The position numbers and the translations under genes are program-made. From Candidatus Moraniibacteriota bacterium (lineage in GTDB: Bacteria > Patescibacteriota > Minisyncoccia > JAHIHE01 > DAOVOJ01), in NCBI GenBank assembly GCA_030629775.1, contig DAOVOJ010000003.1, positions 1 through 36,023 on the forward strand: a stretch of DNA of 36,023 bases, given 5' to 3'. How positions within the stretch are numbered: the stretch's first letter is position 1; each line of letters opens with the position of its first letter. This document shows positions 1-35,707 of the stretch, in pieces. The notes under the pieces were generated by a model. The model had not been told where the DNA came from. It searched no databases and worked only from the letters and a program-made list of their open reading frames with translations.

Positions 1-199
1 CGGACATCATTTTGATCAGCGGCGGGTGTTCCGGATTCAGGCGATAGTCCTGAAATTTTAAATAAGAATAGCCCGCCGGAATGTGCGCCACTTCGTCAAC
101 GATTCCCGAGTCGCCGGCGACACTGGTAACGGCGAGAATAAACATTATCGCCAATAAAATAGCGGCGATAAAATGGGAGCATTTTTTTGTGAGTTTCAT
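1..199 (-). CDS. Partial GT39/PMT_2-like membrane glycosyltransferase (N-terminus only)
   Basis: Reverse-strand ORF open to the window edge: MKLTKKCSHFIAAILLAIMFILAVTSVAGDSGIVDEVAHIPAGYSYLKFQDYRLNPEHPPLIKM; the DE-AHIPAGYSYL..RLNPEHPPL motif is typical of PMT_2-type glycosyltransferases. Confidence 0.65.
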   Translation of the reverse strand, partial: MKLTKKCSHFIAAILLAIMFILAVTSVAGDSGIVDEVAHIPAGYSYLKFQDYRLNPEHPPLIKMMS

Positions 200-203
200 A
201 CTT

Positions 204-254
204 TTATTTTTATTTTATAAAAATTTTATTCTATTTTTATTTTAACATAGTTTT
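204..254. repeat. 51-bp direct repeat, copy 1 (promoter/leader of partial glycosyltransferase)
   Basis: ttatttttattttataaaaattttattctatttttattttaacatagtttt; 50/51 identical to 583-633. Confidence 0.9.
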
Positions 255-25340: not shown

Positions 25341-25907
25341 ATGATCTATAACAAAATAATAAATCAGGAACATGCTAAGCGCGCTGTTGAAATTGCTTTA
25401 TCTGGCAATCACTCCATTAAGTTTATCGGCAACGATGAAGCCGAGCAATTGAAGCAAGCTTGTGATGAACTTAATATCAAAACTATCGCGGTAAAATCCT
25501 GTAGGTGCGGAAATTTGAATGATCAGGAGAGAGATTGTCTTTGCCGATTATTTGAAATTAAGAATCATCAGAGAGGCAAGAAATATAGAACGCCAACAGA
25601 TCTAACAATAGAAGTTCTGAGAGTAACTCCCGCCGCTTATCTTAAATACGAAAGAGGCAAAAAACAGGAAAGCGTAAACGAAGTTAAAAAGCGAGTTAAA
25701 AAGGCAAAGAAAAATAAAGTTGCTGAAAAAATAACAGACGAACAAACATTACAGCTCCTAGAAATCGCTTTAAAACAATTACATCTTTCGCTTAATCAAA
25801 TCAATTCACTCAAGAGAGTCGCCCAAACAATCGCTAAACTGGATAGCAGTTTTGAAATCAAAGTGCGCCATCTCGCTGAGGCGTTACAATACAGGCAAAG
25901 AAATTAA
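25341..25907 (+). CDS. ComM/YifB-derived protein lacking the AAA+ core
   Basis: N-term QEHAKRAVEIALSGNHSIKFIGN aligns with ComM [29 protein letters not shown] but lacks Walker A; C-term LKRVAQTIAKLDSSFEIKVRHLAEALQYR is ComM C-terminus-like. Confidence 0.65.
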   Translation: MIYNKIINQEHAKRAVEIALSGNHSIKFIGNDEAEQLKQACDELNIKTIAVKSCRCGNLNDQERDCLCRLFEIKNHQRGKKYRTPTDLTIEVLRVTPAAYLKYERGKKQESVNEVKKRVKKAKKNKVAEKITDEQTLQLLEIALKQLHLSLNQINSLKRVAQTIAKLDSSFEIKVRHLAEALQYRQRN

Positions 25908-28345: not shown

Positions 28346-28380
28346 CGTTTTTATTGGCTTGTTTATCGGAGTTTCTTTTG

Positions 28381-28408
28381 TTGACGCATTTATTGGCTGT
28401 GCTATTAT
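28381..28408 (+). promoter_or_regulatory. Sigma70-like extended -10 promoter of structured RNA
   Basis: TTGACG-16 nt (ending TGc)-TATTAT. Confidence 0.7.
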
Positions 28409-28414
28409 ATACTT

Positions 28415-28590
28415 GAAAAGTGAATAACAATTAATGGCCTAAACCTCGGGCTTTTTGTCTGAGGCATGGTTTAAATCCACTGTGACATAAAGACGGTTTC
28501 CCGTCTTTGCCATCATGTCACAGTGGTTGCTACTCGAAAGGGTAGTAGGTAACTCCGCGAGGATTACTGGTGAAGCGGGGGACCTTTTTT
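28415..28590 (+). ncRNA. Candidate structured RNA / riboswitch-like leader ending in an intrinsic terminator
   Basis: Stems TAAACC/GGTTTA, CCACTGTGACAT/ATGTCACAGTGG enclosing AAAGACGG/CCGTCTTT, CTACTC-GAAA-GGGTAG, and terminator GGTaaCTCCGC...GCGGGGgACC-TTTTTT. Confidence 0.7.
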
Positions 28591-28651
28591 GATGGAAAAG
28601 TTTCAGAAGCGTTATTAAATCATTAAATATTTTATTCTTAACATTAAAAAT

Positions 28652-29923
28652 ATGAAAAAACTTATCGCATTGTTAGTAATCGTATCATTTTTGATAATTC
28701 CGTCAGCTTCATACAAAGTTAATGCTAATATTTGTAATTTTTCACCTGGTATGGAAGGAGAAGCGCTAGATAATTGTTTAAGGGAACAAAGAAGACAAGA
28801 TCAAATAGCAAGGGATCAATTAATAGCCGATGCAGAAAATGCTCAAGAATTTTATGAAATTAAAATAGCTTATTTTTATAAACTAGATGGTCTTGAAAAG
28901 CAACTTGATGTATTTGACACTAATGGTCAATGTCGTTTTAGTAGCACAGATTGTTTACAAAGTATGAGGATTCCTTCTAATCCAACTACCTTAGGCGCTA
29001 ATGTTTTTTTAAATTTTATGGAAAATAAAGAAAAATGTTTTGATCATCTTTCACAATGTATAGCAAAAAAAATGGCTAATACTCAAACCCAACAACCCAT
29101 AAAAACTGATGATCAAATATGTAGTGAAAAATTTGGTCCAAATTGGAAATGGGATGGCGTTGCATATTGTGTTTGTAAAGATGGTTATACACAAAAAAAT
29201 GGAGACTGTGTTAGTTACGATCAAGCATGTAATATTTCATATCCTAATACAAAGTTTCTAAAAATTGATAATGTCGATGGTCATAGAATATGTGATTGTA
29301 AAAATGGTTATGTGTGGAATAAGCAAAGAACAGGTTGTATTATTGCGCCAGTTGTTCCAGTAAAAACAAATGATCAGATTTGTAGTGATACATACGGAAT
29401 AAATAGTAATTGGAATGGCACTAAAAACGATAATGGTGGTTTAATCTGTGATTGCAAAACTGGTTATGAATGGAATTATAACCAAACAGCTTGTATTAAG
29501 AAAGAAATAATAATACCTCCAAAAGTTAAGGGTGTAAGTGAGAACAATAATTTTTCCATTCCCGAAGGCGCTCTTATCCGAGCAACAAACGGAATTGATA
29601 TTTATATCGTCAAATATGTTGGCACAAAGAAATTCAAACGACTGATTTTAAGCCCATCTGTTTTTAATAATTATGGTCATTTGAGATGGGAGGATGTAAT
29701 GGATGTTGATTGGACAACGCTTAATTCTTTTGCTACTTCCGATCTAGTCCGTGCCGTAGGCGATGATAAAATTTACAGATTATATTCACAGGGCGACAAA
29801 GGACAAAAACGGATGATAAAAAATAATAGCGTTCTAGCGAGATTAGGATTTGATCCCGATTCTATTTATGAAATAAACAGGTTTGATAGAGAATCCTATT
29901 TAAAGGGTCTGGATTTAGAGTAA
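28652..29923 (+). CDS. Secreted Cys-rich (EGF-like) protein with C-terminal repeated beta domain typical of CPR surface proteins
   Basis: Signal peptide; three CxC..GY...C modules; C-term GALIRATNGIDIYIVKYVGTKKFKRLILSPSVFNNYGHLRWEDV. Confidence 0.7.
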   Translation: MKKLIALLVIVSFLIIPSASYKVNANICNFSPGMEGEALDNCLREQRRQDQIARDQLIADAENAQEFYEIKIAYFYKLDGLEKQLDVFDTNGQCRFSSTDCLQSMRIPSNPTTLGANVFLNFMENKEKCFDHLSQCIAKKMANTQTQQPIKTDDQICSEKFGPNWKWDGVAYCVCKDGYTQKNGDCVSYDQACNISYPNTKFLKIDNVDGHRICDCKNGYVWNKQRTGCIIAPVVPVKTNDQICSDTYGINSNWNGTKNDNGGLICDCKTGYEWNYNQTACIKKEIIIPPKVKGVSENNNFSIPEGALIRATNGIDIYIVKYVGTKKFKRLILSPSVFNNYGHLRWEDVMDVDWTTLNSFATSDLVRAVGDDKIYRLYSQGDKGQKRMIKNNSVLARLGFDPDSIYEINRFDRESYLKGLDLE

Positions 29924-31187: not shown

Positions 31188-32018
31188 ATGAAACTAATCT
31201 CTCCCAAACTCAAAAAAGTCATAAAAACAATTATCATTATATTTCTTATTATAACGGCGTTTTCTTTTTGGACGGAACAATACTATCTGCTTTTTGAAGA
31301 CGGCTGGGAAGAAGAAAAGTCTTGTAATGTCTCCAACATAAAACTTCAGGGTGACTTAATAACCTATATTTCCAACGAAGGCAAGAACGAATACGACGAT
31401 CTTCTTTGGGATGAAATTGCTTCGGAAGATATTGTTAGGGCTATTGAAAAAGCGGAGAAAGATGATCATATTAAAGCAATCATTTTAGAAATAGATTCAT
31501 TTGGCGGATATCCCGTCGCTAGTGAGGAAGTGGCTAACGCATTGAAAAGAGCCAAGAAACCAACCATTGCTTTAATTAGGGAATATGGAACTTCTGGCGC
31601 TTATTACGCTGCCACCGGCGCTGACATGATTTTCGCCTCCCAAAATTCCGATGTTGGCAGTATAGGAGTGACTATGTCATATCTCGACCACGCCGAGGAA
31701 AATAAAAAAGACGGGCTAACTTATAACCAACTAAGCGTTGGTAAATTCAAGGACGCGGGAAATTCAGATAAACCTTTAACTCCCGAAGAAAAAGAATTGT
31801 TTATGCGCGACATTAATATCCTCCACGAAAATTTTATCAAAGCCGTCGCTGATAATCGCAATTTGGATATTGAAAAAGTAAGGCAACTCGCCGACGGCTC
31901 CACTATACTTGGCTTAATGGCTTTAGAAAATAATCTCATAGACAAAATCGGCGGGAGATATGAAGTTGAGGAATATTTAAAAGAAAAGCTTGGTGGGGAT
32001 ATTGAAATTTGTCGGTAG
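31188..32018 (+). CDS. sppA: Signal peptide peptidase SppA (S49)
   Basis: AIILEIDSFGGYPVASEEVANALKRAKKPTIALIREYGTSGAYYAATGADMIFASQNSDVGSIGV. Confidence 0.9.
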   Translation: MKLISPKLKKVIKTIIIIFLIITAFSFWTEQYYLLFEDGWEEEKSCNVSNIKLQGDLITYISNEGKNEYDDLLWDEIASEDIVRAIEKAEKDDHIKAIILEIDSFGGYPVASEEVANALKRAKKPTIALIREYGTSGAYYAATGADMIFASQNSDVGSIGVTMSYLDHAEENKKDGLTYNQLSVGKFKDAGNSDKPLTPEEKELFMRDINILHENFIKAVADNRNLDIEKVRQLADGSTILGLMALENNLIDKIGGRYEVEEYLKEKLGGDIEICR

Positions 32019-32074
32019 ATTATGAAAAATTAATTTATTTTTTAATAAGTTTTAATCAATTAATCAAAACAATT

Positions 32075-35000
32075 ATGAACAAGAAAACTCTGAAAAAATC
32101 CTTAGCGGGATTTATGGTCGTGGCAATTTTATTGCCAGTATTATCTTTAATGATAACGGTGTCGCCTGTTTTGGCTTATGAGGAATATCAAGAAAATGGC
32201 AACACTTATATTTTTGGAGAAATTACCGAGAATACTATCTGGACATTAGAAGATAGCCCCTACATTGTAACGGGAAATATAACAGTAGCGGAAAACAAAA
32301 TATTGACTGTTGAGCCGGGAGCGGAAATAAGATTTGACGGGTGGTATCAAATAAATGTTAAAGGAACGCTAAATGCTGTTGGAGAAAAAGAAAATTATAT
32401 TACTGTTACTTCTAATTGGGATAGTCCTTATGTTGGAAGCTGGGAAGGAATAAAATTGGATAGTTCAAGTGAAAATAATGTGATTCAATACGCTGTGATA
32501 GAATATGCCAATATTGGTATTGAGAATAATTACTATTCTTGTGCTCAAAATTTAACTGTTGAAAATTCAATATTTAATAATCTTCGTTATGGCATAATAC
32601 AATGCAAGGGGCTTATCTCTAATAATTATTTTATTAATGTTAACACAGCGTTTGATAGTTCTCGCGAGTGTGAAATTACCGATAATTATATTTCTGGCAG
32701 TACAAATGTTTTTCATTATCCATCTTCTGAAACTATTATTCATTCTAATAATATAGTCAATTACAATCCCACAAACCAGAATGGCTCACACTTAGTTTAT
32801 CACGGTGATAATGAAAATTTGGACGCGACAAATAATTATTGGGGAACTACTGACGAAAATTATATTGACGCTAATATTTGGGATAAGGATAATGATTCAT
32901 GGTTAGGAGAAGTAGTTTATAAACCCTATGCTGATTCTCTTATCACTTTTAATTTAACTGAACCAAGCGATGATATTTTATTTGAAAATGTAAGCAATCC
33001 AGCCGAAACTACTTTTAGCTGGAATCCGATAAATGGTCCAGGAGATATTTTGGATTATTACGAACTTTATATTGACGGTGAACTTAAAGAAACAGATATT
33101 GCTGGAACTGATATTGACTATGACATTTCTTCACTGTCAGACGGTTATCATTCTTGGTATGTTGTGGCAGTGAATAGTGACGGCAATAGTTATAAATCAA
33201 ACAATGTTTTTGGGTTTAATGTTAATATTCGCACTCCGCATACTCCGATTGCCAATCCAGCAGGCGGATGGTATTTTGAGGATCAATATATTACTCTAAG
33301 TTCCAATGACGAGAATAATATTATTAGATATACTTTAGACGGAAGCGAGCCCACAGAAGAAACTTTGTCTGAATATACTTCCCCGATTTCTATAACAGCA
33401 GTTGAAGAAGATTCTATTATTCTAAAAGCTAAAGCGTGGAATAGTGAAGGCAAAAGTAGTCTGATTATGACTGAAGAATATCAGTTTGATTTAACTCCAC
33501 CAGAGGATGTGATATTTGACCTTCAAGGTGGCGTTTATGAAAATCATGTAATTGTCTCTCTATCTTCTGGAGGAAGCGATGAAATCAGATATACCACCAA
33601 TGAAACTGAGCCGAATGAATTGTCAGCTTTATATACAGAACCAATTGCTATAAATAATTCCACTGTCTTAAAAGCGAAAGCGTGGGATGAAGTTGGAAAT
33701 AGCAGTGAGATAATAACAGAAGTTTATAATATTACTGCATGGCATGGTGGAGGTGGTGGTAGTTCGCCTGGCGGTGGAGGCGGAGCTGGATATTCTCCCA
33801 TAGAAATAACAGTGGATAGTTTAAAGACTGACGATACCACGCCTGAATTGACTGGAACAATAAATAACAATGATGCCACAATAACGGTGGCAATAGCTGG
33901 GAATGAATATAGTGCTACTAATAATAGTGATGGAACATGGACATTATCAGATAATATGATAAGCGAGTTATGCATAGGAATATACGATGTTAGAGTTAGA
34001 GCTTCTATAAGTATTGATTATGTTTATGGTTATGGAACTGATGATACAACAAATGAATTGACAATTAAATCAGATGAAGAAAATCCGCCTTATGCGGTGG
34101 CGATAGACAATCAGAAAAACGCTAGACCAGTTTCGGGAGTGGATGAAGCGGATGTCGTTTACGAATTTCCAGTGGAGGGAAGCATTACCAGATTTATGGC
34201 GATTTATAATCCAGACAGCGGAATTGATTCTTCCACTGAAATAGGACCTGTAAGATCAGCAAGACCATATTTCGCGCGGACAGCCAGCGAGCATGAAGCG
34301 ATTTACGCTCACGCAGGCGGTATTCCTGATGCCTTATCTGGTTTGAGCAATCACGAATATAGCGTTTATAATTTAGACGCTTTGTATGGCGGCGGCGATT
34401 ATTTTTGGAGAGATGAAACTAGAGACGCGCCGCACAACCTTTATACTTCCATAGAAAAGCTAAACAATTTTAGAGATGAATTTGAGCTTGGAACTGGAAC
34501 ATTTACTCAGCCATGGATTTTTTCTGATAATCCTTCTTCAATGGAAGGTATAGGATTTGATCAAGCTGAAGTGGAAGTGGAATACACTAATATAAATTAC
34601 AATGTGAAATGGGTTTACGATGATACGGATGGCGTTTATTACAGGCAAACTTACGAAGACGGAAGTTATCAAGATTATATAGACATAAATGACAATCATG
34701 TGTCAACTACAAATCTTGCTATTCAGTATGCGTTTACTAATCCGTTTACAGAAATGTCACAAATGGAGGGAGTTGCATTACTGTGCAGAGAAGGGAAATG
34801 TAGTAATGGAAAATGGAAAAAAGATAATACGGATAGCAATGTAAAATTTTATCTAAGCGGTAGCGAAGAATTTGAATTTAAGACAGGCAAGCTTTGGATA
34901 AATATAGCGGATGCAACCGATGCTCCTCTACCTGCGCCCATTACCAATGTAACAGTAGAAAATGTTAGCGCTGGAGATGAACTGAGGTTGAAAATAAATT

Positions 35001-35707
35001 GGGTTAATCCGTCAAATGAAGACTTAACAAAAATATTTATTTGTCGTTCAAATATTTTTTCTAATGATATGTGGCAATGCGGTTTGGCTGAAAATCTAAA
35101 AGGAGTGTTAGATAATTCTATTGAGAATAATTATATTACTCCCGATTCTACAAGCATTATTGACAATTATCGATTAGTAGAAGGGGCCACTTATTACTAT
35201 CGGTTATACGCATTTGACACTTTGGAAAATATTTATGATGAGTGGGGATATAATCCTGAGTGGTCCGAAGAAGCCAGTGGAATTCCTTTGTATGATCAAC
35301 CAATAGAATCTGGGATCAGAATTGATGATATCACTTGGATTAAAAATTTTGGCACAACTAATGATACTTATACAGACGGCTGGAAAATAAAGTTTGATAT
35401 TACGGTAAATGATCCCGAAGAAAACCAGTTAAAGTTTAAGATGAGTGATTGGACTTCTGATTCAAACATTATAGCGACCATTGGAAATACAAAAATTTCT
35501 TTGAATAATCTTGATACTGAAGTTGATATCTTAAACGCTACAAGCATGGGAACTGAATATGGCGATATGAATCCTTTGACTATTTCTGATATAAATCCTT
35601 CTATGGATAAAACTCAAGCGAGTTTCTATGTCTGGATAAAATTGCCAACGAGTACAGTCGCTGGGAACTATCGCGCGAGCTATAGAATTCAAACTTTAAC
35701 TCAATAA
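32075..35707 (+). CDS. Large exported multidomain protein: beta-helix, CHB_HEX_C-like repeats, Gly-rich linker, DUF3048-like domain
   Basis: Signal peptide; NIWTLEDSPYIVTGNITVAENKILTVEPGAEIRF; two IRYT(L/T)(D/N)GSEP-type modules; GGGGGSSPGGGGGAG; AIDNQKNARPVSGVDEADVVYEFPVEGSITRFMAIY (DUF3048). Confidence 0.75.
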   Translation: MNKKTLKKSLAGFMVVAILLPVLSLMITVSPVLAYEEYQENGNTYIFGEITENTIWTLEDSPYIVTGNITVAENKILTVEPGAEIRFDGWYQINVKGTLNAVGEKENYITVTSNWDSPYVGSWEGIKLDSSSENNVIQYAVIEYANIGIENNYYSCAQNLTVENSIFNNLRYGIIQCKGLISNNYFINVNTAFDSSRECEITDNYISGSTNVFHYPSSETIIHSNNIVNYNPTNQNGSHLVYHGDNENLDATNNYWGTTDENYIDANIWDKDNDSWLGEVVYKPYADSLITFNLTEPSDDILFENVSNPAETTFSWNPINGPGDILDYYELYIDGELKETDIAGTDIDYDISSLSDGYHSWYVVAVNSDGNSYKSNNVFGFNVNIRTPHTPIANPAGGWYFEDQYITLSSNDENNIIRYTLDGSEPTEETLSEYTSPISITAVEEDSIILKAKAWNSEGKSSLIMTEEYQFDLTPPEDVIFDLQGGVYENHVIVSLSSGGSDEIRYTTNETEPNELSALYTEPIAINNSTVLKAKAWDEVGNSSEIITEVYNITAWHGGGGGSSPGGGGGAGYSPIEITVDSLKTDDTTPELTGTINNNDATITVAIAGNEYSATNNSDGTWTLSDNMISELCIGIYDVRVRASISIDYVYGYGTDDTTNELTIKSDEENPPYAVAIDNQKNARPVSGVDEADVVYEFPVEGSITRFMAIYNPDSGIDSSTEIGPVRSARPYFARTASEHEAIYAHAGGIPDALSGLSNHEYSVYNLDALYGGGDYFWRDETRDAPHNLYTSIEKLNNFRDEFELGTGTFTQPWIFSDNPSSMEGIGFDQAEVEVEYTNINYNVKWVYDDTDGVYYRQTYEDGSYQDYIDINDNHVSTTNLAIQYAFTNPFTEMSQMEGVALLCREGKCSNGKWKKDNTDSNVKFYLSGSEEFEFKTGKLWINIADATDAPLPAPITNVTVENVSAGDELRLKINWVNPSNEDLTKIFICRSNIFSNDMWQCGLAENLKGVLDNSIENNYITPDSTSIIDNYRLVEGATYYYRLYAFDTLENIYDEWGYNPEWSEEASGIPLYDQPIESGIRIDDITWIKNFGTTNDTYTDGWKIKFDITVNDPEENQLKFKMSDWTSDSNIIATIGNTKISLNNLDTEVDILNATSMGTEYGDMNPLTISDINPSMDKTQASFYVWIKLPTSTVAGNYRASYRIQTLTQ

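What the first reader, a model, noticed from the sequence alone, without database searches (positions are those of the whole stretch)
28381..28590. Structured RNA candidate with its own promoter and intrinsic terminator
The UvrD-to-secreted-protein gap has a near-consensus promoter (TTGACG-N16-TATTAT with TGc extended -10), then a dense series of stems: TAAACC/GGTTTA, 12-bp CCACTGTGACAT/ATGTCACAGTGG capped by 8-bp AAAGACGG/CCGTCTTT, a GAAA tetraloop hairpin, and a terminator GGTaaCTCCGC..GCGGGGgACC-T6. A small tCC-GCGA-GGa hairpin competes with the terminator's left arm, as expected for an attenuating riboswitch. The next gene begins ~60 nt downstream and encodes an exported protein. Fragments (TAACTCCGnGAGG, GCGGGGGACC) vaguely recall ydaO/c-di-AMP and GEMM/c-di-GMP sequences, but I cannot assign a family.
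Basis: partly seen in the sequence, partly recalled or inferred. Interest (0 to 1): 0.75.

Follow-up and report, generated by a model that had tools for sequence, protein, structure and literature searches.

The report
LOOT RNA leader with hidden pseudoknot
The predicted structured RNA is real and belongs to a catalogued family of unknown function (LOOT RNA) found in Patescibacteria; comparing about 150 relatives shows an extra conserved pairing that the family model misses and suggests that these RNAs are switch-like leaders in front of the genes they control.

Summary
The structured RNA is real, and it is a member of a known family. cmscan finds Rfam RF03000 (LOOT RNA) at 28436-28568, 66.9 bits against a gathering score of 46.4. 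A second copy lies elsewhere in this genome. LOOT is a Patescibacteria family of unknown function, filed in Rfam as 'Gene; sRNA'. It is not ydaO or GEMM.

New from 115 non-redundant loci plus 37 independent ones: (1) A pseudoknot lies just outside the Rfam model. The P2 apical loop pairs with the strand before the U-run (window 28495-28504 with 28575-28584). The core pairs are 96.5% standard, against 40-64% when slid. (2) LOOT behaves as a 5' leader. A same-strand gene follows in 107 of 114 loci, median 58 nt after the model end. Paralogous copies share DNA from the promoter to about the start codon. (3) In about a quarter of loci the P2 5' strand is repeated just before the start codon (27 against 0.5 expected), so P2's 3' strand can pair isoenergetically with either copy, a bistable translational-switch layout. 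The window copy lacks this repeat and ends in U6, which fits a terminator-type output.

Regulation itself is inferred. The trigger is unknown.

The parts
28381..28408 (+). promoter: TTGACG - 16 nt - TATTAT
   Evidence: sequence; TATAAT-like box enriched at this place in LOOT loci, 70/115 vs 10-21; shared with the second LOOT copy, alignment from -60
28436..28568 (+). LOOT RNA as modelled by Rfam RF03000 (P1-P4)
   Evidence: cmscan 66.9 bits, gathering 46.4, model 1-121 of 121
28436..28471 (+). P1 hairpin with CCUAAAC...GCAUGG internal loop, an 11-nt GAAA-tetraloop-receptor-like motif
   Evidence: cmscan alignment; motif counts over 115 loci; receptor CCUAAG/UAUGG and its A-insertion variant, PMC11381326
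28477..28488 (+). P2 5' strand CCACUGUGACAU (locus-specific)
   Evidence: no other copy in this genome apart from P2 itself
28515..28526 (+). P2 3' strand AUGUCACAGUGG
28489..28508 (+). P2b apical hairpin AAAGACGG-UUUC-CCGUCUUU
   Evidence: -9.1 kcal/mol
28495..28504 (+). pseudoknot 5' strand GGUUUCCCGU in the P2 apical loop
   Evidence: 10-bp helix with 28575-28584, -15.7 kcal/mol; family-wide covariation
28575..28584 (+). pseudoknot 3' strand GCGGGGGACC, outside the Rfam model
28528..28547 (+). P3 hairpin with GAAA tetraloop (28536-28539)
   Evidence: GAAA loop seen in P3 of nearly all loci (with the sequences)
28549..28567 (+). P4 hairpin with GCGA loop
28585..28590 (+). U6 run directly after the pseudoknot strand, terminator-like
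   Evidence: sequence; U-run follows the tail in nearly all loci, six or more U only in loci without the start-codon repeat
28652..29923 (+). downstream gene, 423 aa with a signal-peptide-like N-terminus; presumed regulated gene
   Evidence: same-strand gene follows LOOT in 107/114 loci; no Pfam match above cut-off
28376..28658 (+). promoter-leader module shared with the second copy (G000:C17), ending at the start codon
   Evidence: blastn of the two copies, -60..222 relative to LOOT start, 70% identity

Best explanation
This is a LOOT RNA (RF03000) that acts in cis as the 5' leader of the exported-protein gene at 28652. Shown here: its sequence and P1-P4 fold match the family; a covarying P2-loop/tail pseudoknot runs directly into the U-run; the promoter, leader and tail form one unit that is duplicated up to the start codon in front of different genes. 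Inferred: the RNA is a two-state regulator. In terminator-type copies such as this one, pairing of the tail with the P2 loop just before U6 would help end transcription, and preventing that pairing would let RNA polymerase reach the gene. In repeat-type copies elsewhere, the P2 3' strand would choose between the P2 5' strand (start site free) and an identical copy next to the start codon (start site blocked). The trigger is unknown.
For: Rfam match and second copy. Pseudoknot: 24.0 against 14.2 for swapped loci; 92.0% standard over 8 pairs against 74.2 +/- 1.0% when tails are dealt among loci; 96.5% in the 7 core pairs against 40-64% slid, double-change covariation 0.43 against 0.04-0.11; repeated in 37 other loci. 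Cis context: same-strand gene in 107/114, upstream gene divergent in 77/113, start codon median 58 nt after the model end, copies share DNA from promoter to about the start codon. Repeat-type: 27/115 against 0.5 expected, none upstream, -3 to +5 nt from ATG in 25 of 27; duplex energies -17.8 and -17.6 kcal/mol; one genome holds 7 copies of which 5 each carry their own matching repeat. Loci with six or more U never have the repeat, 0/26 against 18/85, p = 0.006.
Against: No expression, termination or ligand data. The repeat is found in only about a quarter of loci in the first set and 3 of 37 in the second. In the remaining loci no LOOT segment pairs with the start region clearly above control, so their output device rests on the U-run alone. 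At the window the 60 nt between U6 and the gene could hold a second promoter. Loci are related by descent, so the tests are not fully independent. Rfam lists LOOT as an sRNA gene.
Confidence: 0.55

Rival explanations
1. LOOT is a stand-alone small RNA made from its own promoter and ended at the U-run; it acts in trans or on a protein, and the gene that follows is coincidental.
For: Own promoter and U-run; Rfam type 'Gene; sRNA'; no start-site pairing in about three quarters of loci.
Against: Same-strand gene close downstream in 107/114 loci; little room for another promoter in most; conserved unit reaches about the start codon; repeat-type loci; the P2 strand of the window copy occurs nowhere else in the genome.
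Confidence: 0.25
2. The promoter-LOOT unit is a mobile or duplicating DNA element whose RNA structure serves its own spread; regulation of neighbours is secondary.
For: Patchy distribution, 84 of 384 genomes, up to 7 copies; paralogous units stop near the start codon in front of unrelated genes; near-identical copies at contig ends in G148; accessory and defence genes downstream.
Against: No terminal repeats or target-site duplications were looked for or noticed; position is nearly always just upstream of a same-strand gene, which fits selection for cis function; no match in the phage collection with the window copy.
Confidence: 0.12
3. A c-di-GMP or c-di-AMP riboswitch relative (GEMM or ydaO).
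For: Loose sequence resemblance; a GAAA tetraloop/receptor pair, recalled also from the c-di-GMP-I riboswitch (own knowledge).
Against: No match to those families even at E = 10; own genome has neither GGDEF nor DAC; no positive association over 384 genomes: GGDEF 29/84 against 108/300, p = 0.90; DAC 8/84 against 52/300, p = 0.09.
Confidence: 0.02

Closest known systems
LOOT RNA, Rfam RF03000
   Same: P1-P4, conserved CCUAAAC/GCAUGG motif, GAAA hairpin; score above gathering over the full model.
   Different: The Rfam model stops at P4; the pseudoknot partner and U-run lie 7-22 nt further on. Rfam 15 reports 2 added covarying pairs for LOOT (PMC11701678) and the family is described as metagenome-based (PMC7779021); whether its discoverers noted the pseudoknot or the downstream repeat could not be read.
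Translational riboswitches with an anti-anti-RBS strand
   Same: Repeat-type loci: one strand can pair with either of two identical strands, one of them at the start codon, with equal energy.
   Different: No ligand known; the switching helix differs in sequence from locus to locus and is matched to its own gene; the downstream copy seldom goes with an SD motif (4 of 26).
Transcription-attenuating leaders with intrinsic terminators
   Same: Structured 5' leader, GC-rich helix, then U6 before the gene.
   Different: The helix abutting the U-run is a pseudoknot with a distant apical loop, not a local hairpin.
11-nt GAAA tetraloop receptor
   Same: CCUAAC...UAUGG in 35 loci, CCUAAAC...CAUGG in 58, with a GAAA loop in P3.
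   Different: C-G in place of G-C at the closing position; the A-insertion form dominates. Docking not tested; an A-insertion variant was measured in PMC11381326.

Membership tests
LOOT RNA (RF03000) | score at or above the curated gathering cut-off | tested here: met
   66.9 vs 46.4 bits, E 1.2e-10
LOOT RNA (RF03000) | full-length match with P1, P2, P3, P4 | tested here: met
   model positions 1-121 of 121; the P2 cap and one P4 pair are marked as non-standard in that alignment
LOOT RNA (RF03000) | host range: Patescibacteria / CPR | tested here: met
   84/384 genomes of the phylum; named hits nearly all CPR, the few others contigs of metagenome bins; 0 of 14 control genomes
ydaO-yuaA / c-di-AMP (RF00379) | match to the covariance model | tested here: not met
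   not listed at E up to 10
c-di-GMP-I / GEMM (RF01051) | match to the covariance model | tested here: not met
   not listed at E up to 10
riboswitch | cis position in the 5' leader of a gene | tested here: met
   positional evidence only
riboswitch | direct binding of a specific ligand that changes expression | not testable with these tools
   needs probing and reporter assays
intrinsic terminator | GC-rich helix followed by a U-run | tested here: met
   pseudoknot strand then U6; termination itself not tested

The most novel reading that the evidence does not exclude
LOOT is a widespread Patescibacteria class of bistable 5' leaders, spread as portable promoter-leader units, in which many copies carry their own address: a P2 arm identical to the start-codon region of their own gene, with a pseudoknot-driven switch between the two. 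Copies such as the window's use the same fold with a pseudoknot terminator instead.
Probability: 0.4. Interest if true: 0.8.

Novelty: new member of a known kind. Interest (0 to 1): 0.55.

Why it matters
Patescibacteria are a large group with few known regulatory systems. If LOOT RNAs are cis switches, about a fifth of these genomes use them to control exported proteins and restriction-modification genes, and a family of unknown function becomes testable. A switch whose sequence is rewritten at each gene to match that gene's own start site would be an unusual regulatory logic.

Tried and rejected
A trans target for P2 in this genome: the 12-mer occurs only in P2 itself. Pairing of the 5' leader with the spacer: no signal. 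Any other LOOT segment pairing with the start region in loci without the repeat: no clear signal. A local hairpin P5 around the tail: 51% of loci against 22% swapped at score 14, kept as a possible competitor of the pseudoknot. c-di-GMP and c-di-AMP: no positive association. Viral contig scans failed, the machine gave no answer. The original LOOT description (doi 10.1093/nar/gkx699, from memory) is not held.

Full report
What is there. A second copy lies on another contig of the same genome, 65.7 bits. Neither ydaO nor GEMM appears even at E = 10.

Distribution. LOOT occurs in 18 of 57 near relatives and 84 of 384 genomes of the phylum, up to 7 copies each, and in none of 14 control genomes. 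A named-genome scan gave 48 stretches, nearly all Patescibacteria / CPR, the few others being contigs of metagenome bins. I collected 118 loci (about 115 non-redundant) as the discovery set and 37 further named loci as an independent set.

A pseudoknot beyond the Rfam model. In almost every locus the apical loop of P2 can pair with the strand that lies after P4 and just before the U-run. The best helix scores 24.0 on average against 14.2 when loops and tails of different loci are combined. On a fixed register of 8 pairs, 92.0% of cells are standard, against 74.2 +/- 1.0% when tails are dealt anew among loci and re-fitted. The 7 core pairs are 96.5% standard, 40-64% when slid by 1-3, and the double-change covariation is 0.43 against 0.04-0.11. 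The observed register was chosen per locus by best fit, so the slid control alone favours it; the dealt-tail control allows for that. The independent set agrees, 22.8 against 15.0. The P4-tail pairing is barely above control across loci.

Tertiary motif. P1 carries CCUAAC/UAUGG in 35 loci and CCUAAAC/CAUGG in 58, and P3 carries a GAAA loop (the GGAA entries there are GGGAAAC sequences that contain GAAA). This resembles the 11-nt tetraloop receptor, for which an A-insertion variant has been measured (PMC11381326). Docking is inferred.

Cis context. The first gene 3' of LOOT is on the same strand in 107 of 114 loci, and the first gene 5' is divergent in 77 of 113. Start codons lie a median 58 nt after the model end. 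TATAAT-like boxes are enriched just upstream, 70 of 115 against 10-21. LOOT copies within one genome share DNA from about -60 to about the start codon; the two copies here align from -60 to 222, that is 28376-28658. Downstream genes are diverse: DNA methyltransferases, zinc-ribbon proteins, DUF4352, SNase, Shedu, KilA-N and exported proteins.

The start-codon repeat. In 27 of 115 loci 8 or more nt of the P2 5' strand recur downstream, against 0.5 expected from swapped loci, 0 upstream and 1 in reverse complement. In 25 of the 27 the copy ends within -3 to +5 nt of an ATG. For the 26 loci classed as repeat-type, the P2 3' strand binds either copy with nearly equal energy, -17.8 and -17.6. Genome G411 holds 7 LOOT copies of which 5, each with a different P2, carry a matching repeat. 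The independent set has 3 of 37 with 9 or more nt, 0.03 expected. About 6-8 of 26 repeat-type genes are methyltransferases, by my reading of family counts; with 8 against 1 of 82, p = 3e-5. Repeat-type loci never have six or more U after the tail (0/26 against 18/85, p = 0.006), which suggests two output types but may reflect descent. The window copy has no repeat; its P2 12-mer occurs nowhere else in the genome.

Interpretation. The best reading is a cis-acting two-state leader. Location, unit structure and pseudoknot are shown; regulation, direction and trigger are inferred. c-di-GMP and c-di-AMP synthases do not associate with LOOT (GGDEF p = 0.90, DAC p = 0.09 in the negative direction), and this genome has neither.

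Limits. Start codons and genes were assigned by simple ORF rules. Loci are related. P2 was found by a script. The original LOOT paper could not be read, so novelty of the pseudoknot and repeat is relative to the Rfam model and the papers held. The viral scan could not be run.

Noticed in passing
G000:C17:4178-4310 (L002): Second LOOT copy of this genome, followed by a gene for another exported protein; tail GGCGGAAGGC then U7.
   Followed up: yes
G163:C3:17612-18107 (L072): Two LOOT copies about 240 nt apart, each in front of a short gene; the two small proteins resemble each other, as if a LOOT-gene unit had been duplicated in tandem.
   Followed up: partly
G148 contigs C25, C40, C88: Contigs begin or end exactly at near-identical LOOT copies, so recent duplicates seem to break the assembly.
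   Followed up: partly
window 25341-25907: A 188-aa ORF matches the start and the C-terminal part of the Mg-chelatase/ComM family but lacks most of the middle; probably a remnant.
   Followed up: no
window 32009-35707: 1232-aa protein with DUF3048 plus chitobiase C-terminal-like and Ig-like domains, next to an S49 peptidase gene.
   Followed up: no
LOOT loci, 3' of the tail: In about half of loci a local hairpin (for example GCTGGCGGG...CCCGCCAGC in G421) could compete with the pseudoknot for the tail strand.
   Followed up: partly
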